From a virus, in IMG/VR virus record IMGVR_UViG_3300048032_000927, positions 51,246 to 115,245 of that record: 64,000 nucleotides of DNA; one strand, written 5' to 3'. Position numbers and translations under genes: made by a program. The notes under the pieces are model-generated. The model was not told where the DNA came from and did not search any database. It saw only the letters and a program-made list of their open reading frames with translations. Of this stretch, positions 4,550 through 56,852 are shown one piece after another. The stretch's first letter is position 1. Every line of letters begins with the position of its first letter.

Positions 4550-4592
4550 AGAAGAGAAGGCTTCTGTTAATTAGTGAATATAATTATATGAT

Positions 4593-6268: not shown

Positions 6269-6285
6269 AACAAAGTTTAAAAATT

Positions 6286-6885
6286 ATGGAAAGAAGTGAT
6301 ATAATAAACAAGTATGTTGAAAATTATGGTTATGAGACATATTTAGAGGTTGGATTACAAAGTGGTAGTAATAGAGATAAGATCAAAGTTAACCCTAAAA
6401 ATAAAACCACTGTTGACCCTGATATTACATCTAATAACCCTACACACAGAATGACATCAGATGAGTTTTTTATGGGTAATAATAAAACATTTGATGCAAT
6501 TTTTATTGATGGGTTACATTATTCCGATCAGGTATTAAGAGATATTTTAAATGGGTTAGAGATTCTTAATGAAGGGGGTACAATTTTTTGTCATGATATG
6601 TTACCTGAGAATGAAGATATGGCTAAAGTACCTAGAATTACAAGTACATGGACAGGTGACTGTTGGAAGGCTTGGTTTAAATTATTAGGTACTAGGGATG
6701 ATTTAGAGATGTTCATTGTTGATACTGATTTAGGTGTTGGTGTTATAAGAAGAGGTAAAAATATACCTTTAAAAGAATTAAATATACCTATGGAGAATAT
6801 GCAGTGGAGTCTATTCGCTGAACACTCAATAAAAAATACTATCAATAAAATTAGTACTTCTGAATTTATTGAAAAATGGAAATGA
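6286..6885 (+). CDS. Class I SAM-dependent methyltransferase (Methyltransf_24-like)
   Basis: About 199 aa from ATG at 6286; an in-frame TTG at 6250, behind AGAGGT and overlapping the previous gene, is an alternative. TYLEVGLQSGSN is the SAM-binding motif I, FDAIFIDGLHYSDQVLRDI is the post-motif II strand with the DGxH seen in this family, and LEILNEGGTIFCHDM is motif III. Such enzymes O-methylate sugars or small molecules; in this block glycan methylation is the likely role. Related proteins occur at 29652 and 38035. Confidence 0.75.
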   Translation: MERSDIINKYVENYGYETYLEVGLQSGSNRDKIKVNPKNKTTVDPDITSNNPTHRMTSDEFFMGNNKTFDAIFIDGLHYSDQVLRDILNGLEILNEGGTIFCHDMLPENEDMAKVPRITSTWTGDCWKAWFKLLGTRDDLEMFIVDTDLGVGVIRRGKNIPLKELNIPMENMQWSLFAEHSIKNTINKISTSEFIEKWK

Positions 6886-7583
6886 AACTAATAACAATAT
6901 TCAATTTTCCCAATCAAAATAATTACAACAATCTTTGTCAATGGTGGATTAGTCAATGCCTAAAAAATTCGGAATTAGATATTGAAATTTGGTATAGAGA
7001 CAGCATTGATCACCTTAAAATTTTAGATAAAAGAATCAGGTGCATTAAAAAAGATGAAGTCAAAATATCTAGTCTATTAAAATCAAACTTAATCTCAGAT
7101 AAAGCTCAACATAATATTGGATTCAAGCTTTACAATCTTTGTCAAGAGTCCGATCCCTTTATATTTATAGACGCCGACGCTATTTTATTTAAAGATATTA
7201 CCCCATTAATCAACGCCTCTAAAGATAAGCCTTTTATAGCTATAAACCACCAAGATATACCCGGACACACTTCTCATATACCTTATAAGTTCTTAAATAG
7301 CGGGGTCCAGATTTGCAGTGACTCCAGTGTATTAGATTTTAATGAAATTGTTAAAGCCCAAAATCTTCATGATTATTTTATTGTTCCCGGCACGGATCAA
7401 TCAATGCTTTGGACGTACTTTAACCATATTAAATATAATTATACGCACAAAGATATTGGTCGCGAATGGAATAACTGCGCAGGATTAAAGAGTGGCGAAA
7501 GTGACATTTGCATAAACCATTATTGGTACAACTTTAAACCATGGAATATTAAATGTAAATTCTGGGAATCTTTTTTATCATAG
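6882..7583 (+). CDS. GT-A glycosyltransferase with DAD motif
   Basis: 233 aa from ATG at 6882, chosen for its ATGA overlap; ATG at 6876 is equally possible. FIFIDADAILFKDI is a typical DxD metal/nucleotide-sugar site of retaining GT-A enzymes (GT8-like), and FLNSGVQI matches the 'fNsGv' strand that follows in that group. GTDQSMLW corresponds to the usual 'DQ..ln' acceptor motif. Function: transfer of one sugar; donor unknown. Confidence 0.7.
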   Translation: MKLITIFNFPNQNNYNNLCQWWISQCLKNSELDIEIWYRDSIDHLKILDKRIRCIKKDEVKISSLLKSNLISDKAQHNIGFKLYNLCQESDPFIFIDADAILFKDITPLINASKDKPFIAINHQDIPGHTSHIPYKFLNSGVQICSDSSVLDFNEIVKAQNLHDYFIVPGTDQSMLWTYFNHIKYNYTHKDIGREWNNCAGLKSGESDICINHYWYNFKPWNIKCKFWESFLS

Positions 7584-7588
7584 CATAA

Positions 7589-8620
7589 ATGAAAAAAATA
7601 ATTATTACAGGAGTCACAGGTCAGGACGGCAGTCATATGGCTGACTATTTATTAAAAAATACTAATTTTAAAATCTACGGAGCAGTTCGTCGTCTTAGTG
7701 TTAAGAATCACGAGAACATTTTACATTTAGAAAATGAGCCGCGCTTTGAGTTAATAAATATGGACCTTAACGACGCTCATAGCATGAGAGATGTCATCAT
7801 AGATCTTCAGCCTGATTATTTTATTAATTTCGCCGCCCAATCTTTTGTTGCCGGTAGCTGGGATTACCCAATCCAAACATGGGACACCGATGCAGATGCA
7901 GTTCTGCATATACTAGAATCAATCAGAAGATTTTCGCCAGCTTGTCGTTTTTATAATGCAGGATCCTCCGAAGAATTTGGCGATGTTATTTATAGCCCCC
8001 AAAATGAAGAGCATCCATTACGACCACAATCTCCTTATGGCGCAGCAAAATGCGCGGCTCGTCATATTGTGAGGGTCTACAGAGAATCTTACGGTTTGTT
8101 TGCGATTCAAGGTTGGCTATTTAATCACGAGGGCACAAGAAGAGGTCTCGATTTTGTTACAAGGAAAATCAGCAACGGTGTCGCAAAAATTAAACATGCA
8201 ATTGAAAGCGGTCAAGAAATTCCTACCCTGCAGCTCGGCAATATTGACGCTCAACGAGATTGGACTGACGCAGAAGATTTTATGGAAGGAGTTTGGATGA
8301 TGCTGAACAGAGACAAGCCCAAAAACTATGTTCTCGCTAGCGGCAAGATGTATACTGTTCGTGAGTTTTTGAATGAAAGTTTAAAATGTGCTGATATTAA
8401 ATTTATAGCAAAAGGCTCCGAAGAAAACGAAGAATATTATACCGAAGACGGCAAACTAATCTTTAAGGTTAATTCAAAATTTTATAGGCCCGCTGAAGTT
8501 CATGAGCTTTGCGGAGATTGCTCTCTGGCAGAGCAGGAGATGGGCTGGACTCGTAAAACTGACTTCTACGGTTTGGTTAAAAAAATGTACGATAACGATT
8601 ACAAGCTTCTCTCAAAGTGA
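7589..8620 (+). CDS. gmd: GDP-mannose 4,6-dehydratase
   Basis: 343 aa, full family length. Converts GDP-D-mannose to GDP-4-keto-6-deoxymannose. N-terminal ITGVTGQDGSHMADYLL is the diagnostic Gmd NADP motif, with VRRLS after beta-2; AGSSEEFG (about 125-131) and Tyr150/Lys154 in YGAAK give the catalytic Ser-Glu-Tyr-Lys set; LFNHEGTRRG and DWTDAEDFMEG are further Gmd hallmarks. It overlaps the next gene, GDP-L-fucose synthase, which uses its product. High identity to cellular Gmd is apparent, so recognition is firm. Confidence 0.95.
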   Translation: MKKIIITGVTGQDGSHMADYLLKNTNFKIYGAVRRLSVKNHENILHLENEPRFELINMDLNDAHSMRDVIIDLQPDYFINFAAQSFVAGSWDYPIQTWDTDADAVLHILESIRRFSPACRFYNAGSSEEFGDVIYSPQNEEHPLRPQSPYGAAKCAARHIVRVYRESYGLFAIQGWLFNHEGTRRGLDFVTRKISNGVAKIKHAIESGQEIPTLQLGNIDAQRDWTDAEDFMEGVWMMLNRDKPKNYVLASGKMYTVREFLNESLKCADIKFIAKGSEENEEYYTEDGKLIFKVNSKFYRPAEVHELCGDCSLAEQEMGWTRKTDFYGLVKKMYDNDYKLLSK

Positions 8621-9561
8621 AAGAAAGTAAAGTCTTTGTGGCCGGCCATAGAGGAATGGTCGGCTCTGCAGTATTAGATAATCTAAAATCAAAAGGCTAC
8701 AATAACATAGTAACAAAGACTAGAAATGAAGTAGATTTAACTAGTCAGCAAGATGTTGATGAATTATTTGGTAATGAAAGCATCGATTATGTTATTTTAT
8801 GTGCTGCTAAAGTTGGTGGTATATTAGCTAACAATACTTACAGGGGCGATTTCATATATGAAAATTTACAAATAGCCTCAAACATTATCAAGTCATCGCA
8901 AGTTCATGGTGTATCAAAATTAATCAACCTTGGATCTTCATGCATTTACCCAAGAGATGCAAAAATACCCATTAAGGAAGAATCGCTACTTACTGGTATA
9001 CTAGAAAAAACAAATGAGCCTTACGCTATCGCTAAAATAGCGGCGCTTAAAATGTGCGAAGCATTCAATACTCAATACGGTAGTAATTTTTATTCACTTA
9101 TGCCGTGCAATCTTTACGGTCCCCGAGATAATTTTGACCTTAAAACATCCCATGTTCTTCCGGCGTTTATTAATAAAGTTCATGCCGCAAAACTTTCGGG
9201 GCAAAAAGAAATAGAGGTCTGGGGTAGTGGCAAACCGTTAAGAGAATTTCTTTACGTAGATGATTTAGCTAGCGCAGTAATATATTGCTTAGAGAATATT
9301 GAAGCTAAAGATATATACGAGCAAGGAATATCTCACATTAACTGTGGGTCTGAAGACGAGGTTTCGATTTCTGAACTCATGTATATCATACAAGACGCCG
9401 TTAATTATAACGGTAAGATTGTCTTTGATAAAACGAAACCCGACGGAACCTTTCGGAAGAAAATGGATAACACAAGAATACAAAACCTAGGGTATAAAAA
9501 TACTACATCATTAGCAGATGGAATAAAAAAAACATATTCTTGGTTTAAAAATAATTTTTAA
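8617..9561 (+). CDS. fcl: GDP-L-fucose synthase
   Basis: 314 aa from GTG at 8617, overlapping the gmd stop (GTGA). Epimerises and reduces the Gmd product to GDP-L-fucose. AGHRGMVGSAV is the characteristic NADP motif; LCAAKVGGI, Ser107/108 in LGSSCIYP, and Tyr136/Lys140 in YAIAK match the catalytic residues of the E. coli enzyme, at nearly identical numbering. MPCNLYGPRDNF is also diagnostic. Together with gmd it supplies donor for the fucosyltransferase-like proteins in this window. Confidence 0.95.
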   Translation: MKESKVFVAGHRGMVGSAVLDNLKSKGYNNIVTKTRNEVDLTSQQDVDELFGNESIDYVILCAAKVGGILANNTYRGDFIYENLQIASNIIKSSQVHGVSKLINLGSSCIYPRDAKIPIKEESLLTGILEKTNEPYAIAKIAALKMCEAFNTQYGSNFYSLMPCNLYGPRDNFDLKTSHVLPAFINKVHAAKLSGQKEIEVWGSGKPLREFLYVDDLASAVIYCLENIEAKDIYEQGISHINCGSEDEVSISELMYIIQDAVNYNGKIVFDKTKPDGTFRKKMDNTRIQNLGYKNTTSLADGIKKTYSWFKNNF

Positions 9562-11728: not shown

Positions 11729-14203
11729 ATGGACATAAAAGTTAAGAAAAGAAATGGTCGCCTAGAAAACTTCGAAGTAGATAAAATCAACGCAAGCGCC
11801 CAAAGAGCATGCGAAGAAATAGAGGACGTTTCAGCGAGTGAAATAGTTCTCGACGCCCAACTTCAACTATTCGATAAAATTACCACAAAAGAGATAGATC
11901 AAGCTCTTATTTTGTCGGCCAGAGAGAAAATCGAAAAAGAACCAAACTATTCTTTCGCTGCAGCAAGGCTTTTATTGAATTGTCTATACAAGGAGGTTTT
12001 CAAAGAAGGCGTTGATTCTGACGCATTCAGACTACAATACAGAAAAAGCTTTATACAAAACATTAAAAAACTAGTTAAACAAAATAGACTAGATAAAAGA
12101 CTACTAGATTTTGATTTAAATAAATTATCAGAAGCAATAAAAATCAGGAGAGATAAAGATTTCAAATACTTAGGTATACAAATATTATTTGATAGATATC
12201 TCCTTAGATCTGAAGATAAAATCATGGAAACTCCTCAGGCTTTCTGGATGAGGGTTGCGATGGGATTATCTATTAATGAAGAAAATAAAGAAGAAAAAGC
12301 TATAGAGTTCTACAATCTCTTTAGTCAGTTCTTATACACTCCCTCTACCCCTACCCTTTTTAACAGTGGAACTACTCACTCACAGCTTAGTTCTTGCTAC
12401 CTTAATACTTTTGATGATAGTATTGACGGCATTTTTGACGGCGCTTGGCAAGAAGCTCGAAAATCAAAGTACGCCGGTGGCCTTGGCCTTGATGTTACCC
12501 CTTTTCGTTCTACAGGTTCTCATATTCAAGGAACTAACGGTATATCTAGCGGCTTGGTGCCTTGGCTTAAAATATACAACGATTTACTGGTAGCAGTTAA
12601 TCAGGGCGGGAAGAGGCCCGGAGCAGGGTGCGCTTACTTAGAGCCTTGGCATTTAGACTTTGAAGATTTCTTGAACTTACGCAGAAATACCGGAGACGAT
12701 AGGTTGCGCTGTCATGATATGAATACAGCCGCTTGGATTCCTGACGAGTTCATGCGTCGCGTTGAGAGTGAAGATGTCTGGTACTTTTTTGACCCAAAAG
12801 ATACCGAAAATGAAGATGGAAAAAATCTTCACGATCTTTTTGGCAAAGATTTCGACGATCACTACAATAAAATGTGTGATGCAGCAGAAGAAGGTTTGAT
12901 TAAGAACTATAGGATAATACCTGCAAAAGAATTATGGAAAAAGATGTTGAAAGTATTATTCGAAACCTCTCACCCTTGGAACACATTCAAAGATCCTTGT
13001 AACATAAGGTATACAAATCAACATGAAGGTACTGTTCATAGCTCTAACCTTTGTACTGAAATCACGCTTCATACCAAAGCATCTAAGTATGAAGAAGGAG
13101 AAAAAACAGAAATTGGAGAAACGGCAGTATGTAATTTAGGTTCAATTAATTTATTTAATCATTTAATTCAAAAGCAAGCTCATGGAGGGTCAGGATGGGC
13201 TATTGATTATGACAAACTAAAGTCTACTATTCATACAGCTATAAGGATACTCGATAATGTAATAGATATAAACTTTTACCCAACCAAAGAGGCTGCTAAT
13301 TCAAATCTGCGCAACAGACCTATTGGCTTAGGCATGATGGGCACACATGATGTTTGCCACAAGTTAAACATAAATATAGATAGCGAAGAAGCGGTTAAAT
13401 TTAGCAATAAGTTGTTTGAGTTTTATTCTCATCATGCTATTTACGCAAGTTCTATACTAGCTAAAGAAAAAGGAAAATACGAAACCTATGAAGGTTCTTT
13501 ATGGAGTCAAAATATACTACCCATCGACTCTTATAACAATTTAACTTCATACCGAGATAAAACAAGGCAATTCTCCACAGGCAAAGGTGAGTCATTGGAA
13601 TCTTGGGCTAAAGTTCGCGAGCACATTAAAGAGTTTGGCATGAGAAACTCTAATGTTATGGCTATTGCTCCCACCGCAACTATTGGTTACATTAACGGAG
13701 TAGAGCAAAGTATTGAGCCAAACTTTTCAGTGCTATTTGTTTACGAAAATAAAAGTGGAAACTTTTACATAACAAATCAACATTTCGTAAATGACATGAA
13801 AGAAAGAGGGTTATGGTCTTCAGAAATTGCGGCTATGGTCAAAGGTGCAGATGGAGATCTTTCTTTACTAAACGGCGCTATACCAGAAGATTTGAAGCAA
13901 AAGTACTGCACCGCTTTTGATAGAGATATGTTAAAACTTGTTGATTGTAATGCGGCTCGGCAAAAATGGGTTGACCAAGCAATAAGCTTCAATTTATACA
14001 ATAAAACGACATCCCTGAAATATTTGAATGATATTTACATATCTTGCTGGAAAGCTGGGCTAAAAACTACTTACTATTTAAGAAATAGAGCGGCGAGTAA
14101 AATTGAAAAATCTACAGGATCAGAAACTTCAGAAACCGCAGAACAATCAGCTTGCAGCATAGAGGCAATGAAAAATGGGGGAACTTGCGAAAGTTGTCAG
14201 TAA
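11729..14203 (+). CDS. nrdA: Ribonucleoside-diphosphate reductase large subunit
   Basis: 824 aa, full length for class I NrdA. Reduces ribonucleotides to deoxyribonucleotides for phage DNA synthesis. Residues 1-95 form an ATP-cone (VKKRNGRLENFEVDKI...), implying dATP feedback. Catalytic residues are visible: Cys223 (SSCYL), Asn440-Cys442-Glu444 (NLCTEI), Cys468 (AVCNLGSINL) and the C-terminal shuttle pair Cys820/Cys823 (GGTCESCQ). ATIGYINGVEQSIEP holds the radical-transfer region. The radical-generating partner is encoded 1 kb downstream and is unusual. Confidence 0.96.
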   Translation: MDIKVKKRNGRLENFEVDKINASAQRACEEIEDVSASEIVLDAQLQLFDKITTKEIDQALILSAREKIEKEPNYSFAAARLLLNCLYKEVFKEGVDSDAFRLQYRKSFIQNIKKLVKQNRLDKRLLDFDLNKLSEAIKIRRDKDFKYLGIQILFDRYLLRSEDKIMETPQAFWMRVAMGLSINEENKEEKAIEFYNLFSQFLYTPSTPTLFNSGTTHSQLSSCYLNTFDDSIDGIFDGAWQEARKSKYAGGLGLDVTPFRSTGSHIQGTNGISSGLVPWLKIYNDLLVAVNQGGKRPGAGCAYLEPWHLDFEDFLNLRRNTGDDRLRCHDMNTAAWIPDEFMRRVESEDVWYFFDPKDTENEDGKNLHDLFGKDFDDHYNKMCDAAEEGLIKNYRIIPAKELWKKMLKVLFETSHPWNTFKDPCNIRYTNQHEGTVHSSNLCTEITLHTKASKYEEGEKTEIGETAVCNLGSINLFNHLIQKQAHGGSGWAIDYDKLKSTIHTAIRILDNVIDINFYPTKEAANSNLRNRPIGLGMMGTHDVCHKLNINIDSEEAVKFSNKLFEFYSHHAIYASSILAKEKGKYETYEGSLWSQNILPIDSYNNLTSYRDKTRQFSTGKGESLESWAKVREHIKEFGMRNSNVMAIAPTATIGYINGVEQSIEPNFSVLFVYENKSGNFYITNQHFVNDMKERGLWSSEIAAMVKGADGDLSLLNGAIPEDLKQKYCTAFDRDMLKLVDCNAARQKWVDQAISFNLYNKTTSLKYLNDIYISCWKAGLKTTYYLRNRAASKIEKSTGSETSETAEQSACSIEAMKNGGTCESCQ

Positions 14204-15253: not shown

Positions 15254-16267
15254 ATGTCAGATAAAAATGGTCAACTTCTATCTCAAAATATCGCCGGTGT
15301 AAATCGAATCTTGCCTCATAAGCATAAGTATGCATGGGATCTATTCCTAAAAAGTTGTGCAAACAATTGGATGCCTACAGAGATTTCTATGCAAAACGAT
15401 ATTAATCAATGGAAAAATAATGAAATCACAGAAGACGAAAAACTCTTGGTCAAGCGTTGTTTGGGCTTTTTTGCTGGAAGCGAGTCTCTCGTTGGTAATA
15501 ACTTGCTTCTTTCTGCTTTTAGATATATTACTGACGCTGAATGCCGCCAATATATTTTGCGCCAAGCATTTGAAGAGAGTCTTCACAATCTTACGATAGT
15601 ATACGTTTGTGATAGCTTAGATCTGGATATTGATGAAGTTTTTACTGCTTACGAAACTATCCCTAGTATCAAAGCTAAAGATGACTTTCTTATGGGTATA
15701 ACTGATGATCTTAGCCGCCAAGATTTCGATCCCACAACGACACAAGGGAAGCAAGAAATACTTAGGAATTTCTTAACTTATTGGATTGTCTGCGAGGGTA
15801 CATTCTTTTTTAGCGGTTTCGCTATGCTTCTTGCTTTAGGCAGGCAAAACAAGCTTCAAGGTATTTCTGATCAAATTAAATATACATTAAGAGATGAAAG
15901 TTCCCATATTGCCTTTGGAACTTATTTAATTAATACATTGATCGAGCAAAATCCAGAAATCTGGACAGAAGAAATACAAAATGAATTTATCGAGCATATG
16001 AAAAAAGCCGTAGAGCTAGAGATAGCATATGCGAAAGATGTATTACCAACAGGTATATTAGGATTAAATTCGGAGATGTTTGTTGATTATATGTATTATA
16101 TTGGCAACAGAAGGCTTGAGGCTATTGGTTTAGATTACAGGTTTCCTAGTGATAAAAATCCGTTTCCTTGGCTGGGAGAAGTAGTTGACGTTCAGGCTAT
16201 GGGCAACTTTTTTGAAAGAAGAGTTAGGGAATACCAACAAAGCGGATCTTTAGAAGACGATTTCTGA
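15254..16267 (+). CDS. nrdB: Ribonucleotide reductase small subunit, class Ic-like (no radical tyrosine)
   Basis: 337 aa. Metal ligands are all identifiable: Glu77 (GSESLVGNN), Glu108 and His111 (EESLHN), Glu181 (CEGTFFF), Glu215 and His218 (DESSH). In standard NrdB the radical tyrosine lies four residues after the first ligand His; here that position (115) is Ile, in HNLTIVYVCDSL. The first ligand is Glu, not Asp. Both features, and long similarity (CANNWMPTEI, LGFFAGSESLVGNN, ILRQAFEES, NPFPWL), match the Chlamydia trachomatis class Ic subunit, which uses a Mn/Fe centre in place of a tyrosyl radical. Cofactor type is inference. Confidence 0.93.
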   Translation: MSDKNGQLLSQNIAGVNRILPHKHKYAWDLFLKSCANNWMPTEISMQNDINQWKNNEITEDEKLLVKRCLGFFAGSESLVGNNLLLSAFRYITDAECRQYILRQAFEESLHNLTIVYVCDSLDLDIDEVFTAYETIPSIKAKDDFLMGITDDLSRQDFDPTTTQGKQEILRNFLTYWIVCEGTFFFSGFAMLLALGRQNKLQGISDQIKYTLRDESSHIAFGTYLINTLIEQNPEIWTEEIQNEFIEHMKKAVELEIAYAKDVLPTGILGLNSEMFVDYMYYIGNRRLEAIGLDYRFPSDKNPFPWLGEVVDVQAMGNFFERRVREYQQSGSLEDDF

Positions 16268-45134: not shown

Positions 45135-46631
45135 ATGATATATTCTCCTGAAGTAGAGAAACAGCTTCTTGCTGGTTTATTAAATTACCCAGATAAATAT
45201 GTAGAGATAGCAATGTTTGTTGGTTCTAAAGATTTCTTCTTTGATCCTCATCAAATTATCTATAGTTTTATCAAGTCTGATTACGAAGCGGGAAACCATA
45301 TAGATGACATTATACTTTCTGAACGAATTAAGCTTTCAGGCATTTCTTTTGAAGACAATATTAATGTAGCTGATTATTTAAGAGCTTTAAAGCTTAAAAA
45401 GTCATCGAAAGAATCTGTAATTGAGTGCGCTAAAGAGCTTTGTAAACTTTCGGCGCGTAGATCTTTATCTAAAACAGGTCAAGAGATGCAGAAGGCAATG
45501 AAAAACATTGACCCTTCAAAAAGTTTAAATGAAATCATTGAGTCATGCGATAAAATTTATTCATCAAACATTGATCTGTATGAAAATGGAGAAAACTTTC
45601 CTCAAAATATCTATTCGGATATGGAAGAGATTATTGAGCTTCGAGGCAACAACCCTCAAGATAACTTTGGTCCTGTCGGACCTCATCCAAGATTGCATGA
45701 GCTCTATGGTTCTCTTTTGCGCCCAGGAAACATAACGACTATAGTGGCAAGAACTGGTGTTGGTAAAACTCAATTCGTTATGGATTTTTGCAATAAAGTT
45801 TCGGCGTCTGAAGGGATACCTGTTCTTCATCTAGATAATGGAGAAATGAGTAAGGAAGAATTAATTATGAGACAATGCTCATCTCTCTCAGGCGTACCTC
45901 TTTCTCTTCTTGAGACGGGTCGATGGAGAAATGCAGGACAAGAAGTTGTCGATAAAGTTAGAAGAGTGTGGAATATAGTAAAAAATTATCAGTTTTATTA
46001 TCAAAATGTTGGCGGCATGGATTCAGATGCAATTATGCAGCTAGTCAAGCATTTCTATTTTGGTCAAGTTCAGAGAGGCAATGAAATGATTCTATGTTAT
46101 GATTATATCAAAACTAGTTCAGAGAAAATGGGTAATAAAGCCGAGTATCAAGTAGTTGGCGAAACTGTTGATAAATTCAAAAGGCTAATTCAAAGAGAGA
46201 TAGTATTTAACGACAAACCTATGATCTCTATGATGACCAGCGTTCAGAGTAATCGGGCTGGAATAACAAATAATAGAACCTCAGACAATATTGTCGAAGA
46301 TGAGAGTATCGTATCGCTATCAGATAGAATTACTCAATTCAGCTCGCACTTGCTCTCATTAAGGCAAAAGACTACAGATGAATTAGCGGAAGAAGATAAT
46401 ATGTTTGGAACGCATAGATTAACTTGTTTTAAATATAGACACTTAGGCGACAATGTTCACAGGGCTATACAACCAGTAAGAATGCCCAATGGAGACTTAA
46501 AAAGAAACTTCATTAATTTAAGCTTTGAAAATTTTAATATTACTGAACTTGGAGACCTACAAGATATGGTAGATTCTCAAGTTGATGTTGGGCTTGTTAA
46601 TGGTCAAGGAGCATCAGATATTGATATATGA
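45135..46631 (+). CDS. dnaB: Replicative DNA helicase
   Basis: 498 aa, DnaB-type. N-terminal helical domain (SPEVEKQLLAGLLNYPDKYV, typical of DnaB-N) for hexamer assembly and primase contact, linker, then a RecA-fold motor: ARTGVGKTQFVMDF (Walker A, residues 205-212), VLHLDNGEMSKEELIMR (DnaB motif 'l.fSlEM...el..R' with Gly before Glu), and MILCYDYIKTSSEK as the Walker B region. A longer insert separates the last motifs. Overlaps the primase gene by ATGA. Confidence 0.92.
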   Translation: MIYSPEVEKQLLAGLLNYPDKYVEIAMFVGSKDFFFDPHQIIYSFIKSDYEAGNHIDDIILSERIKLSGISFEDNINVADYLRALKLKKSSKESVIECAKELCKLSARRSLSKTGQEMQKAMKNIDPSKSLNEIIESCDKIYSSNIDLYENGENFPQNIYSDMEEIIELRGNNPQDNFGPVGPHPRLHELYGSLLRPGNITTIVARTGVGKTQFVMDFCNKVSASEGIPVLHLDNGEMSKEELIMRQCSSLSGVPLSLLETGRWRNAGQEVVDKVRRVWNIVKNYQFYYQNVGGMDSDAIMQLVKHFYFGQVQRGNEMILCYDYIKTSSEKMGNKAEYQVVGETVDKFKRLIQREIVFNDKPMISMMTSVQSNRAGITNNRTSDNIVEDESIVSLSDRITQFSSHLLSLRQKTTDELAEEDNMFGTHRLTCFKYRHLGDNVHRAIQPVRMPNGDLKRNFINLSFENFNITELGDLQDMVDSQVDVGLVNGQGASDIDI

Positions 46632-47677
46632 CATCAGATAAGATAAAAGATATACTCACAAATCTTGGCTACAAACTTACTGATTGTGGAAATCACTGGA
46701 GAACTAGCGCCTTATACCGAGGCGGAAGTAATCCTACCGCAGTGCAAGTTTACAAAGATTCTGGTGTTTGGCTAGATTATGTTAAAAACTCTCAAGCGTT
46801 ACCTCTTGAATCTCTTATTCAAGCGACACTTCAGACTAATGACAAAGAGCAAATTAAAAAAATCACAGGAGGCTACGATTTTTCTATTACCAGAACAGAA
46901 GTTGTCGAACGCCCAAAACTTACCATGGAAAAAACATACCCAGAATCAATGCTTGACAAACTGCTTCCTCACTATAAATTCTACAACAACAGAGGGATTT
47001 CTAGCGAAACCCTCATGTTTTTTAGGGGTGGGCTAGCTACGGAAGGAGCCATGTATCAGCGCTTTGTTTTTCCAATATATAACGAAGATGGCCAAATTTA
47101 TGGATTTAGCGGGAGAGACATGACTACATCTAATCCTAATCGCCCTAAATGGAAACATATAGGTAAAAAATCGAATTGGATTTATCCTTACTATGTGCCA
47201 AATGACTCATACAATATTACCCAACAAGCTATTTCCGATCAAGATTTAGTTATATTAGTTGAAAGTATAGGCGATTTACTGCAATTACATGAACAAGGAA
47301 TTAAAAACGTGCTAGTGACTTTTGGCACGTCTTTATCTTCTAAATTGTTATGCTTTTTAGTTTCTGCGGGTTGCTCTAAAATTGCACTATCATTAAACAA
47401 CGACTCCAACCAAGAACACAACCGAGGAAGAATAGGCTCATTTAAGTCTTACTTAAAATTATTGAATTATTTCCCTCAAGATAGTATAATAATACATCCG
47501 CCTACTGAAAAAGATTTTGGCGAAATGAAACAAGAGCAATTTCCAGAATGGCTGCAATATCTAGAAACCGAAGCATACAAAGATGATCAACTTAATTACC
47601 AGAAAGAAGTTCTTGAATTAATCGACCAAAAAGAGATACCATCTTCTTTGTACAAAAAAAAGTATTTTGATGCCTAA
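46628..47677 (+). CDS. DnaG-like primase lacking an obvious zinc site
   Basis: 349 aa. The N-terminus (residues 1-60) has the shape of the CHC2 zinc domain, ending in AVQVYKDSGVWLDY (compare 'sf.vnp.k..w.cf'), but only one Cys is present, so zinc ligands are lost. The catalytic core follows (FYNNRGISSETLMFFRGGL, RFVFPIYNEDGQIYGFSGRD) and a TOPRIM domain: DLVILVESIGDLLQLHEQGI with catalytic Glu, VLVTFGTSLS, and KIALSLNNDSN for the Asp pair. It lacks the C-terminal helicase-binding domain of DnaG. Encoded directly after the helicase. Confidence 0.85.
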   Translation: MTSDKIKDILTNLGYKLTDCGNHWRTSALYRGGSNPTAVQVYKDSGVWLDYVKNSQALPLESLIQATLQTNDKEQIKKITGGYDFSITRTEVVERPKLTMEKTYPESMLDKLLPHYKFYNNRGISSETLMFFRGGLATEGAMYQRFVFPIYNEDGQIYGFSGRDMTTSNPNRPKWKHIGKKSNWIYPYYVPNDSYNITQQAISDQDLVILVESIGDLLQLHEQGIKNVLVTFGTSLSSKLLCFLVSAGCSKIALSLNNDSNQEHNRGRIGSFKSYLKLLNYFPQDSIIIHPPTEKDFGEMKQEQFPEWLQYLETEAYKDDQLNYQKEVLELIDQKEIPSSLYKKKYFDA

Positions 47678-48734
47678 ATTAACTCCATTATCCGCCAGTA
47701 GAATAAAAAAAGCTCAAAGCTGCTCATGGAGCTACTGGGCTAGTTATATACTAAAAGTCCCAGATAAAAGTAACGACGGCGCAAGTCGTGGATGGATCTG
47801 TCACTTAATCTTTGAATTATTAGGCAACCCTCGCCACCGACCAATATACGACGAGTTAATATTAAAAGATGATATTTTTGCTTGTGAACCGATACGAAGA
47901 TTGGTCGGATATCACGCTAGAAAATTGAATGTAAACGATAAAGAAAACCTGCAGTTAATCAACGACATGACCTTAGCGGGTTTGCATTTTGATTTCTTTG
48001 GAGGAGCAAGAGGTGAGCCTGACGAAGCTATATCTGAGCAAGAGTTCAACATCACAGTGGACGAGGCAGATAAACTTTATAGATTAAGAGGCTTCATAGA
48101 TAAACTATTCTTCTATAAAGATCAAGAGCTAGCTGTAATTAGAGACTTTAAAAGTAGCAAGGCAGTATTTAAGGGTAAAGAATTATCAGACAATCTACAA
48201 GATTTATTATATACTTTAGCGGTTAAAAAACTATTCCCTCATTACAAAAAAAGACAAGTAGAATTTTTATTTTTGAAATTTGACCTGCATGCTTCTGGTA
48301 ATGTTAGAATGGAAGAAATTACAGATGAAGAGTTAGAGGGCTTAGAATACTATCTAACAGAGATACAAGAATTTATTGATAACTTCGATGAAGAAGATGC
48401 GCGCAGTAATTTCGCAGGGGCGCAAGGTTACCCTTCCGACGGAACATTTGGAGGTCCCTTAATGTGCGGTAAAGATGGATATAAAATATCTAAAGGTAGC
48501 CCGCTATTAGATAAAGAAGGGAACCCTATTGTCGCATATATATGCCCATACAGAAAGCCGATGACCTATTTTGTGATTAAAAATAAAGACGGCAAAATTA
48601 TTAAATCTGTTTTTGAAAATCAAAAAGATACACTCAAGGCGAATGATTCAGACGGTGAATTTATAGAAGAAATGCGTTACGAAGGTTGCCCGTATTGGAA
48701 CCGCCCATCTGTAGAAATCGACGATTTTCTTTAA
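47670..48734 (+). CDS. RecB/Cas4-like PD-(D/E)XK exonuclease with four-Cys pattern
   Basis: 354 aa from ATG at 47670, overlapping the primase gene by 8 nt. LSASRIKKAQSCSWSYWASY is the typical start of AddB/Cas4-type nucleases with the first Cys; RLRGFIDKLFF and IRDFKSSKAVF give the catalytic 'GxiDrl...i.DyKt' Asp and Asp-x-Lys; later Cys residues in LMCGKDG, YICPYRK and EGCPYW may complete an Fe-S site. Probably a 5'-3' or single-strand exonuclease in replication or recombination. Confidence 0.8.
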   Translation: MPKLTPLSASRIKKAQSCSWSYWASYILKVPDKSNDGASRGWICHLIFELLGNPRHRPIYDELILKDDIFACEPIRRLVGYHARKLNVNDKENLQLINDMTLAGLHFDFFGGARGEPDEAISEQEFNITVDEADKLYRLRGFIDKLFFYKDQELAVIRDFKSSKAVFKGKELSDNLQDLLYTLAVKKLFPHYKKRQVEFLFLKFDLHASGNVRMEEITDEELEGLEYYLTEIQEFIDNFDEEDARSNFAGAQGYPSDGTFGGPLMCGKDGYKISKGSPLLDKEGNPIVAYICPYRKPMTYFVIKNKDGKIIKSVFENQKDTLKANDSDGEFIEEMRYEGCPYWNRPSVEIDDFL

Positions 48735-50227: not shown

Positions 50228-51001
50228 ATGTTGCTTCCATTATTTAAAAGTCATTTTTCAATAGGAAAATCAATACTAACTCTAGACGCCCCAAAAGAAG
50301 AAGGCAAGGATCAATCATCTGATTCAGTTTTTGATATTGCCTCACAAAATAATCTAGACAAAGTAGTTCTAGTTGAAGATTCTTTTATGGGTTTTTTGCA
50401 GGCTCGTAAAATTTGCTCTGAATTATCTAAGCAGTTAATATTTGGAATTCGATTAGATTTTTGTGAGGACGCCTCTAATATAGAAGACGCGAAAGATGTC
50501 ACATGCAGTCATAAAATTATCATTTTCCCAAAAAACTCTGAAGGGTGCAAAAACCTGAATCATATATACACCCTAGCTAAAACAAAACACAATGGCTGGC
50601 TAGACCTCAATATACTTAAAAAGCATTGGGTAGAAGAAAACCTTGCGCTAGCTGTTCCCTTTTACGATTCTTTTCTTTTTAAAAATTTAACTACTTTTCA
50701 ATCGTGTTTTGTAAATTTCACTTTTACCAAGCCAACCTTTTTCGTAGAAGATAACGGGTTACCGTTTGATTCGATGATCAAGGACTCTGTTTCAAAGTAT
50801 TGCGAAACAAACGATCTAATGACTCAGAAAGTTCAATCAATTTACTATAAAAATAAAAAAGACTTTTCTGCTTATTTAACATACAAATTAATATGTGGCA
50901 GGAATTCGTTTGCAGGAAAAGAGCTTTCATTAGAAAAACCTAACTTTGACCACTTGGGCAGCGATCAGTTTTGTTGGGAAAGCTACATGGAGAAAGTATA
51001 A
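50228..51001 (+). CDS. Stand-alone degenerate PHP domain of DNA polymerase III alpha
   Basis: 257 aa. It aligns by eye with the first ~270 residues of DnaE: LLPLFKSHFSIGKSILTLD for 'HvHseYSlLDG', KVVLVEDSFMGFLQARKIC for 'alTDHgnm.G...f', LIFGIRLDFCED for 'iiGcE.yv', and HKIIIFPKNSEGCKNLNHIY for '.lilLAkn..GykNL..l'. FAGKELSLEKPNFDHLGSDQ precedes the normal junction with the polymerase domain. Most metal-binding His of PHP are replaced, so phosphoesterase activity is unlikely. A structural half of the polymerase is the probable role. Confidence 0.7.
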   Translation: MLLPLFKSHFSIGKSILTLDAPKEEGKDQSSDSVFDIASQNNLDKVVLVEDSFMGFLQARKICSELSKQLIFGIRLDFCEDASNIEDAKDVTCSHKIIIFPKNSEGCKNLNHIYTLAKTKHNGWLDLNILKKHWVEENLALAVPFYDSFLFKNLTTFQSCFVNFTFTKPTFFVEDNGLPFDSMIKDSVSKYCETNDLMTQKVQSIYYKNKKDFSAYLTYKLICGRNSFAGKELSLEKPNFDHLGSDQFCWESYMEKV

Positions 51002-51003
51002 AA

Positions 51004-51642
51004 ATGGAAGATTTACTAAGATTTAAAAAGCAACAAAAGTATATGGTTTTTGATTTCGAAACCTGTAACTTGAATTTAGTTTCGGAGCACAACAAGCCTT
51101 GGCAGTTAGCGTTTTTAATTTATCATGGAGATAAACTCGTTGAATCAAACGATTACCATATTCATTGGGAAGATTTACGCATGTCCGAAGGAGCGCGAAA
51201 AGTCACAGGTTTTAATGATTCTAAATACAAGCGTTTAGCTAAACCGGCGGAAGAAGTACTAGATCACTTCGAGAAGTATTTATACGATGATGATTACATT
51301 AAGCTTGGTCATAACATATTTGGTTTTGATATTTATATCCACAATATTTTCAGGCGTCTTTTGGGAAGAAAGACAGATTACTCCTACTTGAACTCCTCGA
51401 TTGATACTCTTTGTTTAGCTAAAGCTATATACAAAGAAATAGATCTCAACGAAGATGATCAGTTTTTATCTTGGCAGTTTAAACTAAACTCTATTTACGA
51501 AAGAGGAATGAGGCTAAATTTGGGGGCATGCTGCAAAACTTATGAAGTTGATTTTGATCCTGCTAAACTGCACGATGCACTCTATGATATACAAAAAAAC
51601 TACGAAGTCTTTAAAAAAATGCTATGGAAAATCAAAATATGA
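51004..51642 (+). CDS. DnaQ-like 3'-5' proofreading exonuclease
   Basis: 212 aa from ATG at 51004 (GGAGA upstream), directly after the PHP gene. All DEDDh catalytic residues are present: Asp17 and Glu19 (VFDFET), Asp109 (HNIFGFDIYIH), His190 and Asp195 (LHDALYDIQ). ARKVTGF matches the 'a..vhGi' epsilon motif. It lies between two halves of the polymerase, which strongly suggests it is its proofreading subunit. Confidence 0.88.
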   Translation: MEDLLRFKKQQKYMVFDFETCNLNLVSEHNKPWQLAFLIYHGDKLVESNDYHIHWEDLRMSEGARKVTGFNDSKYKRLAKPAEEVLDHFEKYLYDDDYIKLGHNIFGFDIYIHNIFRRLLGRKTDYSYLNSSIDTLCLAKAIYKEIDLNEDDQFLSWQFKLNSIYERGMRLNLGACCKTYEVDFDPAKLHDALYDIQKNYEVFKKMLWKIKI

Positions 51643-51860
51643 AAGAAAATATAAATTGCTATCTTGAATTATACTCAAAAGAGATCCATAATCTGATGGA
51701 AGAGTCTACTTATTTATACGAAAAAATAAATTCCAAGCCTAGGTCTTATTGGGAATTTAACAAAAAAGAATATAATAATATTTTGAAACAAATTAAAGAC
51801 ATCGAAACAAGTGGGGAAGCTTTGCTTACTTGCAAAAATGATTGTATAGCAGATTTATGA
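51639..51860 (+). CDS. Small hypothetical protein within the polymerase operon
   Basis: 73 aa from ATG at 51639 (ATGA overlap; ATG at 51624 adds five residues). Helical and charged: LELYSKEIHNLMEESTYLYE and EYNNILKQIKDIETSGEALL. It overlaps the polymerase gene by ATGA. It may be a linker or polymerase-assembly factor, but this is only from position. Confidence 0.6.
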   Translation: MKENINCYLELYSKEIHNLMEESTYLYEKINSKPRSYWEFNKKEYNNILKQIKDIETSGEALLTCKNDCIADL

Positions 51861-54433
51861 TATCCTTCGTAGAACAATTCACAGAGTACACTGATTGTAT
51901 ACCGCCAGGTGTTCGCTTACCTAAGATTGAAATCAGCCAAAAGCAGTATGAATCCATCAACGCGGACCCAACTATATCAAATTATGATTTTCTTCGCAAG
52001 TTATGCTTAGCAGGTGTTAAACAAAAAGGTATAAATAAATTCAAAAATGCCCAAGATTACTATGATAGAGTAAAAGAAGAACTTTCAATATTAAAAGAAC
52101 TAGGATTTATAGATTACATATTATTAAATTGGGATATTTTAAACTATTGCCACGAAAGTGACATACCCACGGGGCCAGGAAGGGGCAGTGCCGCTGGATG
52201 CTTAGTGCTCTATTTGATTGATGTAACGAAGATTGATCCAATTAAATATGATTTATTCTTTGAAAGGTTTGTCAGTAAAAGCAGAGCTAAAAAGATAGAA
52301 AAGGATGGCATTACATATCTAGATGGAAGTTTATTAGCAGATGTTGATAATGACATTGCCTATGAACACAGATACAAGGTTATTGATTATATTGAGAACA
52401 AATACCCTGGGCGAACTGCAAAAATTCTAACACTTAACACTTTGAGTAGTAAACTCTGCATCAGAGAATGTGGCAAAATAGTGGGTGGCTTTAACGAGTC
52501 AGACATCAATGCAATTACTGCGCTAATACCTAAAAACTTTGGTAAAGTTTCATCTATCCACGAGGCTATCGAAACAACAGAAAAACTAAAAGAATGGGCC
52601 GAAGATAACATTGAAGTAATTAGAATTTCTAAAAAATTAGAAAATTTAAATAAAAATAGTGGAGTGCATCCATCTGGAATAGCTATTTCGCATGACGAGA
52701 TATCAACCTTATCTCCATTGCAAGCTACCAACGAAGGGGCATTGGTTACTGCTTATGATATGAATTGGGTTGCAGAGCTGATGGTTAAGTTTGATATCCT
52801 TGGTTTAAGGACTCTCAGTGTTGTGTACGATGCTTGTGAATCTCTCGATATTGATCCACTTAAAATTCCACTAGACGACAAAAAGACATACCTACCATTT
52901 CAGGAGCTAGAATATGCTCATGGCTTATTTCAAATAGAAGCGCATACTAACTTTAGTGTTTGTAAAAAAATAAAGCCAACCAACCTAGAACAACTAAGCG
53001 CTGTTGTAGCGATTGCAAGACCTGGAGCACTAGACTTTGCTGACCAATATTCAGACTATGTCAGGACAGGAGATTTTCAAAGCCAACATGAAATATATGA
53101 TGATGTGCTCTCCTATACAGGGGGCATCCCGCTGTACCAAGAACAGCTAATGAAAATGGCCGTAAACATTGGCTTCACACTCGATGAAGCTGAACAGCTC
53201 AGAAGGATCGTTGGCAAGAAAAAAGTTGACCAAATGCCCGCATGGAAAGCTAAGATTGAAGCTAAAATAATAGAAAACAAACTACCGCTTGAGGCAGGAG
53301 ATATATTATGGAGAGTCGCGGAAGACAGTGCGAATTATTCTTTCAACAAAAGCCATTCGATTGCTTATAGCACACTCAGTGCTTGGACCACTTATTTAAA
53401 ATTTAATCACCCTAAAGAGTTTTTTCTTTCTTTGCTAAAAATGACCAAGTTTGAGCCTACGCCACAGGCAGAGGTATCACGAATCAGCCAAGAGTTGCCT
53501 TTCTTTGGTATCAAACTATTACCTCCGAGTATATTACGTTCCAAAATGGACTTCTCAATTGAGGGAGATAATATTAGGTACGGCTTAAGTAGCATCAAAG
53601 GAATTAGTGAAAAGTCTTTGAATGCGCTCCGTAAATTTAGAGACGAAGAAAGTAAAACTAAATTTGATTTATTTTTGGCGGCAAAGTCTGCAGGACTTAA
53701 TATCGGGGTACTATCAGCATTAATACAAGCAGGCGCTCTCACTGACGATCCAACGGATGATAGATCAAAGCTTGTGCTTGAAGCTCAATTGTTTAATATT
53801 CTTACTGACAGGGAGAAACGTAACTTCATAGCTATATCTGAGGCTGATGGAGTGGATCTTTTTGCTATATTTAAAAGAGTTACAGAGTCAAACTTTACTG
53901 AAATAGGCGATGACAACAGATCACTAATTAAAGAATCAAGATACAATACATTAAAAAAGAAATATGATCCTTATAAAAAAATCTATTATAAAAATAGTAA
54001 AAGTCAAAAATTTGCAAATTGGTATTTTGAAAAACAATTATTAGGATTCAGTTATTCCTCTCAATTATCTCAAGTATTTGATCATGATACAAACAAACCT
54101 AAAAATTCTGTTTATTTTAAATCTTTAGAGCCTCGAGAATCTTCCAAGTATATCTTTTCTGTAGCTTTTTCGAAGAAAGATAAATCAAGAAACGGTAATA
54201 TGTATATCAAACTAGAGCTTGAAGATGAGTTTGGCACGGTTAACGCAATCCTTTGCGATACTGCCCGAGAAAAGAAATGCACAAACTATATAGAAAAGCA
54301 TAAAGTGCCCAAAGAAGGCAGCATAGTAACACTACATGGAGAAAAAACCAGAGATGGAGATGCTATTTTTGTAAACAATATGAAGATAGTTGATGAAATG
54401 ATATATATGAACTTAAAAGATCTTAAAGTGTAA
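51857..54433 (+). CDS. dnaE: DNA polymerase III alpha, catalytic part (PHP-less)
   Basis: 858 aa from ATG at 51857. It starts just before the palm: TGPGRGSAAGCLVLYLIDVT (about 105-124), then LLADVDNDIAYEHRYKVIDY with Asp162/Asp164/Asp166 at the place of the catalytic PDxDxD, and FDILGLRTLSVV with the third catalytic Asp. SGVHPSGIAIS, PLYQEQLMKMAVNIGFTLDE, RRIVGKKK and NYSFNKSHSIAYSTLSAWTT are fingers and active-site helices. Residues about 760-858 form an OB fold (YIFSVAFSKKDKSRNGNMYI). No PHP at its N-terminus, since that is encoded at 50228. Confidence 0.93.
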   Translation: MISFVEQFTEYTDCIPPGVRLPKIEISQKQYESINADPTISNYDFLRKLCLAGVKQKGINKFKNAQDYYDRVKEELSILKELGFIDYILLNWDILNYCHESDIPTGPGRGSAAGCLVLYLIDVTKIDPIKYDLFFERFVSKSRAKKIEKDGITYLDGSLLADVDNDIAYEHRYKVIDYIENKYPGRTAKILTLNTLSSKLCIRECGKIVGGFNESDINAITALIPKNFGKVSSIHEAIETTEKLKEWAEDNIEVIRISKKLENLNKNSGVHPSGIAISHDEISTLSPLQATNEGALVTAYDMNWVAELMVKFDILGLRTLSVVYDACESLDIDPLKIPLDDKKTYLPFQELEYAHGLFQIEAHTNFSVCKKIKPTNLEQLSAVVAIARPGALDFADQYSDYVRTGDFQSQHEIYDDVLSYTGGIPLYQEQLMKMAVNIGFTLDEAEQLRRIVGKKKVDQMPAWKAKIEAKIIENKLPLEAGDILWRVAEDSANYSFNKSHSIAYSTLSAWTTYLKFNHPKEFFLSLLKMTKFEPTPQAEVSRISQELPFFGIKLLPPSILRSKMDFSIEGDNIRYGLSSIKGISEKSLNALRKFRDEESKTKFDLFLAAKSAGLNIGVLSALIQAGALTDDPTDDRSKLVLEAQLFNILTDREKRNFIAISEADGVDLFAIFKRVTESNFTEIGDDNRSLIKESRYNTLKKKYDPYKKIYYKNSKSQKFANWYFEKQLLGFSYSSQLSQVFDHDTNKPKNSVYFKSLEPRESSKYIFSVAFSKKDKSRNGNMYIKLELEDEFGTVNAILCDTAREKKCTNYIEKHKVPKEGSIVTLHGEKTRDGDAIFVNNMKIVDEMIYMNLKDLKV

Positions 54434-54437
54434 CCAT

Positions 54438-56852
54438 ATGGGAATGGATACTTCACCCAACTTTACTCCAAAGGCTCAACAGCTTATTTCTCAAGCTAAG
54501 TTTTTTGCAACATCTTTAAATGATCATGAAGTTGAAGCAGCTCACCTACTCTTAGTTATATTAAACTCTAAGCATTCATTGATTGATGATTTTATCGAAA
54601 GCTTTGGTTTTAGCTCTGAAGAAATTAAAGTTTTCGTGACTACTTTTTGCGGACTTAAAAAGAATGACGCAGAAGTCTACGAGGCTAAATTCTCTGAAGA
54701 GTTTGCGATAGTTCTTTCCAAAGCCCATGAATTTGCTGAAGAAATAAGCGATGCCTATATAGATGTTGAACACTTCTTTTTTGTGTTCTTAAACTCTTTT
54801 GATGGAGCGCTTTATAGTTTCTTTAAGGCTTATGATGTTGATATCGAAACGCTTGTCAAATCTTTTATCATCTTAATTAAAAGTGACGACAGTATGCTCG
54901 GTTTGCAAAAACCGCCACAACAACCTAGGATTCCTCGATCCAATCCAACTGCTTCTAATACCAAGGGCGATAGCATGCTAGAATCATTTGCCGTGAATCT
55001 AAATAACTTGTGCTTGTCTGGAAAGATTGGTGCGATCATAGGTAAAGATTATGAAATTGATCGCGTTTGTGAGATTTTATCGCGGAAGATAAAAAATAAT
55101 CCCCTATTGATAGGCGACCCAGGGGTCGGCAAAACAGCTATAGTTGAAGGCTTGGCTCATAGAATTGTATCATCAAAAGTTCCACCTTTCTTATTAAACA
55201 AAGAAGTTTATGCTGTTGATCTTGCCTCGATGATTGCTGGCACAAAATATAGAGGTCAGTTTGAGCAGAGAATTAAATCATTACTTTCTGAGTGCCAAGA
55301 TAACCCTAATGTTATTCTGTTTATTGATGAGACTCATACTCTTGTGGGTGCTGGCGGCGCAGAAGGAGCAATGGATGCCGCTAACATCTTAAAACCTGCA
55401 TTAGCTAGAGGCGAAGTAACCCTTATCGGCGCGACCACTTTTCCAGAGTTTAAGAAGAATATCGAGAAAGATGTAGCGTTGACTCGTCGGTTTGAAAGCA
55501 TTCATGTACAGGAACCTAGCCCCGAAGAATGCTTGCTGATATTAAAAGGCTTAAAGAAGTCGTATGAAGATTTCCATGATGTAAAATACTCTGTTAAAGT
55601 TTTAAGCGAGATTGTCAAACTCTGCGACTTATATCTTCCCAACAGAAGATTTCCTGATAAAGCAATTGACGTGCTTGATGAAGTCGGCGCCAAAGTAAAA
55701 ATAAGAAACCTCACTCCTCCCAAAGAAATTTCTGAACTAGAAGATAAAATTTACGGAACAATAGACTCGGATGACCATGATATTGATCTTGAAAAAAATT
55801 TAATTGATGAATATGATAAACTTCTCGATGCATGGAGAAAAGAAGAAATAGAAGGGATTGATATAGATGACATCCTAGAGGTTATATCGCAAAAAACAAA
55901 AGTTCCAAAAGAAAATTTAATTCATGATAAAGACGAAAAAACCAAATCAATTCAAAAATCTCTAGCTAAAGATGTAATTAATCAGCCAGAAGCGGTTTCT
56001 TGTATGAGTCGAGCTATTCTTCGTTCTAAAATCGGCCTCAAAGATCATTGCAAACCGATTGGATCGTTTTTATTTTTGGGGGCTACAGGCGTTGGCAAGA
56101 CATGGAGTGCTAAAATGCTTGCAAAACATTACTTTGGTTCAGAAAAAAACATGTTTCGTTTTGATATGTCTGAATATTCGGAAAAAGTTTCATCTGCTAA
56201 ATTAATTGGGGCATCTCCAGGATATGTGGGATATGAAGAGGGCGGCATATTGATCGAGAGTCTAAAGAAAAAACCTCATTGCGTATTGCTGTTTGATGAA
56301 ATAGAGAAGTCTCACCCCGAAGTTCAGCAGTTATTGCTTCAAATCCTGGAAGAAGGTGAAATCGAGGACAATAATGGTCATAAAGCTTACTTCAAAGATA
56401 CCATTGTTATTCTTACCAGCAATATTGGCTCTGAATTAACTACCAAATCGACTCTTGGTTTTGGTCCAAGTCAAGAATCAAACAGCTCTAAGATTCATGA
56501 CGCTGCCAAAAAAATTCTCAGCCCCGAACTTATCAATCGACTTGATGAAATAGTAATATTCAACCATTTAGAGGAAAAAGATCTGCAAAAAATATTCAAA
56601 AAACAAATCAGAGACCTACAAAAGAAATTAAAATCTAAAAAAATTAAAATTAATTATTCAAATGAGGTTATGAATCATATTTGCAAAGATGCGGCTTCCC
56701 AGAAAATGGGCGCTAGACCTCTCAAGCGAATAATACAACAAAATATAGCTGACGAAATCATCAATTTTTATTTTGAATCTGACTCAATTGAGCCAACAAC
56801 ATTTGATTTTCAAGTTTTAAACAACAAAGTAATACATAAGATTGTGAATTAA
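54438..56852 (+). CDS. ClpC/ClpA-like AAA+ protein unfoldase
   Basis: 804 aa. An N-domain (residues 1-145, two ClpN-type repeats: [15 protein letters not shown] and [15 protein letters not shown]) precedes AAA-1 with GDPGVGKT (226-233), [12 protein letters not shown] and RRFESI, a short middle helix (about 428-470), then AAA-2 with GATGVGKT (548-555), [13 protein letters not shown] and LTSNIGSE. Residues 673-675 (LGF) lie where ClpC/ClpA carry the ClpP-docking loop, so it may hijack host ClpP. No phage ClpP is in the window. Expected to unfold proteins in the cytoplasm. Confidence 0.9.

What the first reader, a model, noticed from the sequence alone, without database searches (positions are those of the whole stretch)
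50228..54433. Replicative DNA polymerase III alpha split into PHP, exonuclease and polymerase genes in PolC-like order
A stand-alone PHP-like protein, a DEDDh exonuclease, a 73-aa protein and a PHP-less DnaE core lie in one operon with overlapping ends. In bacterial PolC the exonuclease is inserted within the PHP domain of one chain; here the same order appears as separate genes. The PHP metal sites look lost, consistent with proofreading by the dedicated exonuclease. This may be a natural intermediate between DnaE plus DnaQ and PolC architectures, or a phage-specific split.
Basis: partly seen in the sequence, partly recalled or inferred. Interest (0 to 1): 0.78.

Follow-up and report, generated by a model that had tools for sequence, protein, structure and literature searches.

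The report
Phage replicase split into three genes
A large group of uncultivated viruses of microbes makes its DNA-copying enzyme as three separate proteins (a dead 'PHP' part, a proofreading nuclease and the polymerase itself) where bacteria carry the PHP part and the polymerase on one chain; two-piece versions are known in a few other phages, so this is a stable and instructive variant rather than a new kind of machine.

Summary
ORF 50228-51001 is a complete DnaE-type PHP domain (high-confidence model; the 21 best PDB fold matches are all C-family polymerases) with its metal site lost. Next come an intact DEDDh exonuclease (51004-51642), a clade-specific 73-aa ORF and a PHP-less, catalytically intact DnaE core (51857-54433). 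The split is neither an assembly error nor degeneration: the order PHP-exo-core, as separate ORFs, holds in all 146 non-identical loci recovered from IMG/VR and mis-binned MAG contigs that carry all three. In 31 of them other genes or spacers separate PHP from exo, in 27 exo from core. Each of 21 records (97-205 kb) holds one DnaE core.

The PolC reading fails. The core is DnaE-type by sequence and fold, with its OB fold C-terminal as in DnaE. PolC's exonuclease sits inside what is one PHP ORF here. The cut is at the PHP/palm boundary. The same cut occurs in Rhodococcus (Trina, Peregrin) and Microbacterium (Krampusvirus) phages, which group with fused relatives; it arose about three times. A 2020 paper already noted two Pol III alpha genes in Krampusvirus.

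Best model: a three-protein Pol III core in which inactive PHP is a structural or exonuclease-docking subunit. Complex formation is inferred.

The parts
50228..51001 (+). Stand-alone, metal-site-less DnaE-type PHP domain (257 aa)
   Evidence: phrog_405 N-terminal match; AF2 model plus Foldseek PDB; profile alignment to the whole DnaE PHP; 142 distinct family sequences
51004..51642 (+). DEDDh 3'-5' exonuclease, DnaQ/PolC-exo-like (212 aa; an upstream TTG at 50971 is possible)
   Evidence: Pfam RNase_T 1.6e-13; phrog_192; PDB profile hits T. maritima PolC-type exo 7.7e-6 and E. coli epsilon 0.0016; D17 E19 D109 H190 D195 invariant 147/147
51639..51860 (+). 73-aa helical ORF, related only in closest relatives (motif PxxYW...IE)
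   Evidence: no family match above noise
51857..54433 (+). PHP-less DnaE core: palm, fingers, HhH, C-terminal OB fold (858 aa)
   Evidence: Pfam PF07733 9e-60, PF17657 2e-31, PF14579 2e-15; PDB profile; AF2 pLDDT 86.3 and Foldseek to DnaE 1.3e-38
54438..56852 (+). ClpA/B-like AAA+ protein directly downstream, present at 79 of the first 80 loci
45135..46631 (+). DnaB-like replicative helicase (same module)
46628..47677 (+). DnaG-like primase
47667..48734 (+). PD-(D/E)XK exonuclease

Best explanation
This is a three-gene DNA polymerase III core of a tailed-phage lineage. A DnaE-type polymerase was cut at the PHP/palm boundary, and a DEDDh proofreading exonuclease gene lies between the two halves. 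The DnaE core copies DNA (active-site residues shown). The separate exonuclease proofreads (active-site residues shown; activity inferred). The PHP protein has lost its metal ligands, so it is almost certainly not a PHP nuclease. It most likely re-associates non-covalently with the palm and acts as a structural and exonuclease-docking subunit, as the PHP domain of E. coli DnaE does for epsilon (inferred). No inteins or frameshifts are needed to rejoin the parts: other genes separate them in many genomes, so the products must be independent proteins.
For: PHP identity. Intact polymerase and exonuclease active sites with lost PHP ligands across 142-154 distinct sequences. Fixed order PHP<exo<core in 146/146 non-identical loci, with gaps over 20 nt in 31 (PHP-exo) and 27 (exo-core), filled by varied cargo genes (IMPDH/GMPR-like, SET, cupin, methyltransferase) or spacers, including possible opposite-strand genes. 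ATGA overlaps in the window. Single DnaE core per record. Independent PHP/palm cuts at the same boundary in Trina (gp101 = DnaE positions 1-276, gp102 from 276) and Hiddenleaf, repeated in Peregrin and Hager, each grouping with a fused relative at 100/99 support. Dead PHP next to an exonuclease gene is also seen in the Pbunavirus Cisa. PMC3919608 and PMC12926913: in bacteria the PHP binds epsilon, and an inactive PHP is usually paired with a DnaQ-type proofreader.
Against: The exonuclease is essentially the bare nuclease domain and I did not find an epsilon-like C-terminal tail, so docking would have to differ from E. coli. No beta clamp was found by PF02768 in 21 records, so how processivity is achieved is unknown.
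Confidence: 0.8

Rival explanations
1. Evolutionary intermediate on the road from DnaE plus DnaQ to PolC.
For: PHP, exonuclease and polymerase genes lie in that order in one cluster; the PDB profile's best exonuclease hit is a PolC-type exonuclease.
Against: Core is DnaE-type by sequence and fold, with a C-terminal OB fold; exonuclease is not inside PHP; the family is a long branch beside phage DnaEs and two other PHP/palm cuts are demonstrably derived. PMC3919608 argues that exonuclease incorporation in PolC and in Bacteroidetes DnaE1 were unrelated events.
Confidence: 0.03
2. The PHP gene is a decaying remnant of a fused DnaE, no longer needed now that a real exonuclease is present.
For: Metal ligands lost in all members; high overall divergence; most members missed by Pfam PHP at its cut-off.
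Against: Full-length ORF in every locus with enough upstream DNA; 24 invariant columns in 64 diverse sequences; about 20 of the 28 least variable columns lie in the loops aligned with the old metal site; fixed position next to exo and core.
Confidence: 0.07
3. The PHP protein has been rebuilt into a new function: the old metal cleft now carries a conserved non-metal motif set (FKS-SIGKSIL, VED, G(L/I)R, PFYDS, LPFD) that binds a partner, DNA end or nucleotide rather than only holding the fold together.
For: Those loops are the most conserved part of the protein although the ligands are gone (mean entropy 0.70 against 2.01 bits elsewhere); PFYDS nearly invariant in 142 sequences.
Against: Loop limits were chosen by hand after seeing the alignment; conservation could reflect packing or palm contact alone.
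Confidence: 0.3
4. Assembly or sequencing artefact, or programmed frameshift giving one chain.
For: ATGA overlaps exist between neighbours.
Against: Same arrangement in 146 non-identical loci, often with whole genes between the parts.
Confidence: 0.01

Closest known systems
Two-gene DnaE of Rhodococcus phages Trina/Peregrin and Microbacterium Krampusvirus (cluster EF)
   Same: PHP and DnaE core on separate adjacent genes, cut at the same PHP/palm boundary; [quoted passage not shown]
   Different: Their PHP keeps essentially the whole metal motif, no exonuclease gene lies between the halves, and they arose separately
E. coli Pol III core (DnaE alpha + DnaQ epsilon)
   Same: DnaE-type polymerase with separate DEDDh exonuclease and degenerate PHP
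   Different: PHP is part of the alpha chain in E. coli; here it is a third protein
PolC
   Same: Contains PHP, DEDDh exonuclease and C-family polymerase
   Different: Exonuclease nested inside PHP, OB fold N-terminal, distant core sequence
Bacteroidetes DnaE1 with exonuclease fused to the PHP N-terminus (PMC3919608)
   Same: Exonuclease physically linked with PHP-polymerase
   Different: There it is one chain, exonuclease before PHP
Pbunavirus/Wifcevirus exo + DnaE (Cisa gp63-gp62; FEC19)
   Same: Degenerate PHP with an adjacent gene (annotated 3'-5' exonuclease in Cisa, hypothetical in FEC19) overlapping the polymerase start
   Different: PHP fused to polymerase; exo precedes PHP
Cyanobacterial split DnaE (intein)
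   Same: DnaE encoded in two genes
   Different: Split inside the polymerase and rejoined by a split intein; no intein at these joints

Membership tests
DnaE-type C-family polymerase alpha subunit | C-family palm/fingers with catalytic Asp residues and PGRGS motif | tested here: met
   PF07733/PF17657; D162, D164, D313 and GRGS invariant 154/154
DnaE-type C-family polymerase alpha subunit | DnaE rather than PolC sequence/fold, OB fold C-terminal of HhH | tested here: met
   Profile 4e-113 DnaE vs 2e-7 PolC; fold 1e-38 vs 9e-17, OB-type matches; strands 762-844 at the C-terminus
DnaE-type C-family polymerase alpha subunit | PHP domain on the same chain (described as universal in bacterial C-family, PMC12926913) | tested here: not met
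   Separate ORFs in 146/146 loci
DnaE-type C-family polymerase alpha subunit | Beta-clamp binding motif and C-terminal tau-binding domain | tested here: inconclusive
   Core ends after the OB fold; no formal motif test made
PolC | DEDDh exonuclease inserted inside PHP | tested here: not met
   PHP ORF spans both PolC PHP halves and the whole DnaE PHP
PolC | N-terminal OB domain before PHP | tested here: not met
   PHP ORF starts directly with the PHP fold; OB is C-terminal in the core
PHP domain (polymerase type) | PHP fold related to C-family polymerase PHP | tested here: met
PHP domain, active nuclease | Metal motif HHDHEH[C/H]DH | tested here: not met
DnaQ/epsilon-like DEDDh exonuclease | DEDDh active site and RNase_T fold family | tested here: met
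DnaQ/epsilon subunit of Pol III | Binds the polymerase/PHP and proofreads for it | not testable with these tools
   Needs biochemistry or complex prediction
Two-gene PHP/core split DnaE (actinophages) | Cut at the PHP/palm boundary | tested here: met
Two-gene PHP/core split DnaE (actinophages) | Common origin of the split | tested here: not met
   Trina groups with fused BoomerJR, Hiddenleaf with fused C3PO; this family is separate

The most novel reading that the evidence does not exclude
In this virus lineage the PHP domain has become an independent, obligatory third subunit of a Pol III core. Its former metal cleft has been rebuilt into a conserved non-metal site that couples polymerase and exonuclease, or binds another ligand: a natural experiment showing what the PHP domain of C-family polymerases does when it is not a nuclease.
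Probability: 0.3. Interest if true: 0.72.

Novelty: new variant of a known kind. Interest (0 to 1): 0.56.

Why it matters
The PHP domain is described as universal in bacterial C-family polymerases and is often inactive, yet its non-catalytic role is hard to test because it is fused to the polymerase. Here it is supplied in trans, across a broad virus lineage, together with its own proofreader. The three parts can be expressed singly and mixed, which makes the structural and docking role of an inactive PHP directly testable. The recurrence of the same cut in at least three phage lineages shows that the PHP/palm boundary tolerates separation.

Tried and rejected
PolC-intermediate reading: rejected. 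Frameshift or artefact: rejected. Second DnaE or second PHP in the same record: none found. Fused PHP-core relative within the family: searched outward in three viral scans and one genome scan, none found; each scan returns at most 80 best loci, so a rare fused member could be missed. Cultured relative: tblastn of core (best about 30%), exonuclease (one partial hit), DnaB (about 26%) and the Clp-like protein (about 41%) in INPHARED gave none close; PHP gave no hit. Beta clamp by PF02768: none in 21 records. The 73-aa protein as a theta-like general subunit: rejected as general, present only in the window's closest relatives. Genome contigs found were probably phage contigs binned into MAGs (5 of 12 Bacteroidota), a weak host hint only. 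PMC3201878 (survey of viral replicases) was not held, so an earlier mention of the split there is not excluded.

Full report
WHAT IS THERE. The window is the right-hand 64 kb of a 115,245-bp IMG/VR virus record. Between a replication block (DnaB-like helicase 45135-46631, primase 46628-47677, PD-(D/E)XK exonuclease 47667-48734) and a ClpA/B-like AAA+ gene (54438-56852) lie four ORFs. (i) 50228-51001, 257 aa. (ii) 51004-51642, 212 aa: the ATG at 51004 is the start shared with homologues, 2 nt after the PHP stop; the TTG start at 50971 that gives an overlap is less likely. (iii) 51639-51860, 73 aa. (iv) 51857-54433, 858 aa. Junctions ii/iii and iii/iv are ATGA overlaps.

IDENTITY OF THE PARTS. 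ORF iv is a DnaE-type C-family core (PF07733 9e-60, PF17657 2e-31, HhH 2e-15) that aligns to Taq DnaE at 4e-113 and to PolC only at 2e-7. Its AlphaFold model (pLDDT 86.3, pTM 0.82) matches DnaE structures at 1e-38 and PolC at 9e-17, and ends in an OB fold, as in DnaE. ORF i matches the N-terminal part (63-188) of the same PHROG whose positions 335-1082 match the core. Its model (pLDDT 89.4) hits only C-family polymerases at E<=0.001 (21 of 21). Profile-profile alignment covers the whole DnaE PHP, ending at the '..FxxxSxxE' strand and helix that close the domain, while the core begins at DnaE position about 250-284. Pfam PHP passes its curated threshold on the same stand-alone ORF in five sister records. 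ORF ii is a DEDDh exonuclease (RNase_T 1.6e-13; phrog_192; PDB profile hits PolC-type exo and epsilon).

CATALYTIC STATUS. Over 142 distinct PHP, 147 exo and 154 core sequences, D17, E19, D109, H190 and D195 of the exonuclease and D162, D164, D166 and D313 of the core never vary. The PHP positions that should hold metal are replaced: Glu by Arg (128/142, otherwise mostly Lys); TDH by VED(S/T/N); SAC by PFYDS (near-invariant); NDxH by (K/Q)(S/T)(I/V)x(Y/H). Only one ligand-type His (H95, 95/142) and one half-conserved His (H9, 68/142) remain. By the published criterion (HHDHEH[C/H]DH; PMC12926913) the PHP is inactive. The loops aligned with the old metal site are nonetheless the most conserved part of the protein (mean entropy 0.70 against 2.01 bits; 20 of the 28 least variable columns in 52 of 257 residues). 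The loop limits were set by hand, so this is descriptive.

HOW WIDESPREAD. Three viral-contig scans and one genome-contig scan gave about 200 loci. In the 146 non-identical loci with all three genes full length, the order is always PHP<exo<core and the parts are always separate ORFs. In 31 of them PHP and exo, and in 27 exo and core, are more than 20 nt apart, with IMPDH/GMPR-like, SET-domain, cupin, methyltransferase and other genes, some possibly on the opposite strand, in between. This excludes a frameshift or assembly artefact and shows that the parts are translated independently. Every one of 21 records (97-205 kb) carries a single C-family core. No close cultured relative was found.

NOT POLC-LIKE. 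PolC carries its exonuclease inside PHP and its OB fold at the N-terminus (PMC3919608). Here a single ORF spans both halves of PHP: the profile matches PolC 404-463 and 640-670, on either side of the PolC exonuclease, with adjacent stretches. The exonuclease gene comes after the entire PHP and the OB fold is at the C-terminus of the core. Gene order PHP-exo-pol is therefore only superficially PolC-like. The same PHP/palm cut, without an exonuclease in between and with PHP metal residues kept, is found in Rhodococcus phages Trina (gp101 = DnaE 1-276; gp102 from 276) and Peregrin and in Microbacterium phages Hiddenleaf and Hager. In the tree Trina groups with the fused BoomerJR and Hiddenleaf with the fused C3PO (both 100/99), apart from the present family, which has a long branch of its own. 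So the cut arose at least three times. A 2020 survey already remarked that the Microbacterium phages have two genes for a subunit typically made from one (PMC7302621).

MECHANISM. Most likely the three proteins form a Pol III core: an active DnaE core, an active DEDDh proofreader and an inactive PHP that restores the missing N-terminal domain non-covalently and may dock the exonuclease. Shown: identities, active-site states, invariant order, separate translation. Inferred: complex formation, docking, proofreading in trans. Supporting parallels: the epsilon-binding site on E. coli PHP (PMC3919608); the bacterial rule that inactive PHP goes with a DnaQ-type proofreader (PMC12926913); and degenerate PHP with an exonuclease gene overlapping the polymerase start in the Pbunavirus Cisa. 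The 73-aa ORF is restricted to the window's nearest relatives and is unlikely to be essential. No beta clamp was detected with PF02768, so a host clamp or an unrecognised factor is assumed.

VERDICT. Observation confirmed; PolC-intermediate interpretation rejected; phage-specific split supported. New variant of a known kind: two-gene DnaEs are known, while the three-gene arrangement with a dead stand-alone PHP and an interposed exonuclease, fixed across a large virus lineage, was not found described in the open-access papers searched.

Noticed in passing
L201:6280-6900 (IMGVR_UViG_3300037487_002061): A naturally split intein interrupts the polymerase core at the catalytic PGRG|SAAG motif: N-intein begins CFVSGQSVKL..., stop, then a separate C-intein ending VHN|SAAGS.
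   Followed up: partly
L097:9402-10000 (MAG contig CALFSW010000260.1): A second naturally split intein at a different core site, NFNK|CMSLDT...stop...GLVTSN|SHS.
   Followed up: partly
L022:5248-8586 and L053:216-3260: Core ORF carries an N-terminal extension of about 250 or 165 residues in place of the gene between exo and core; a fused cargo domain, possibly nuclease-like.
   Followed up: no
L012, L015, L017, L026, L030, L036, L037, L039, L043, L044, L050-L052, L055, L056 and L060, between PHP and exo: IMP dehydrogenase/GMP reductase-like gene repeatedly inserted between PHP and exo; other loci have SET-domain, cupin or methyltransferase genes between the three parts.
   Followed up: no
L218:3221-7846 (Thomasclavelia phage TR-TP1) and L221:4071-8977 (Lactobacillus phage Satyr): DnaE is broken inside the polymerase itself, with an HNH endonuclease gene (TR-TP1) or an unknown ORF (Satyr) between the halves.
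   Followed up: no
window 666-9561 and 19834-40435: Long runs of 200-340 aa ORFs including several nucleotide-sugar epimerases (phrog_540) suggest a large phage-borne surface-sugar biosynthesis cluster.
   Followed up: no
window 54438-56852: ClpA/B-like AAA+ gene directly follows the polymerase in nearly all family loci; its role next to a replicase is unexplained.
   Followed up: no
window 11729-14203 and 15254-16267: NrdA- and NrdB-like ribonucleotide reductase subunits.
   Followed up: no
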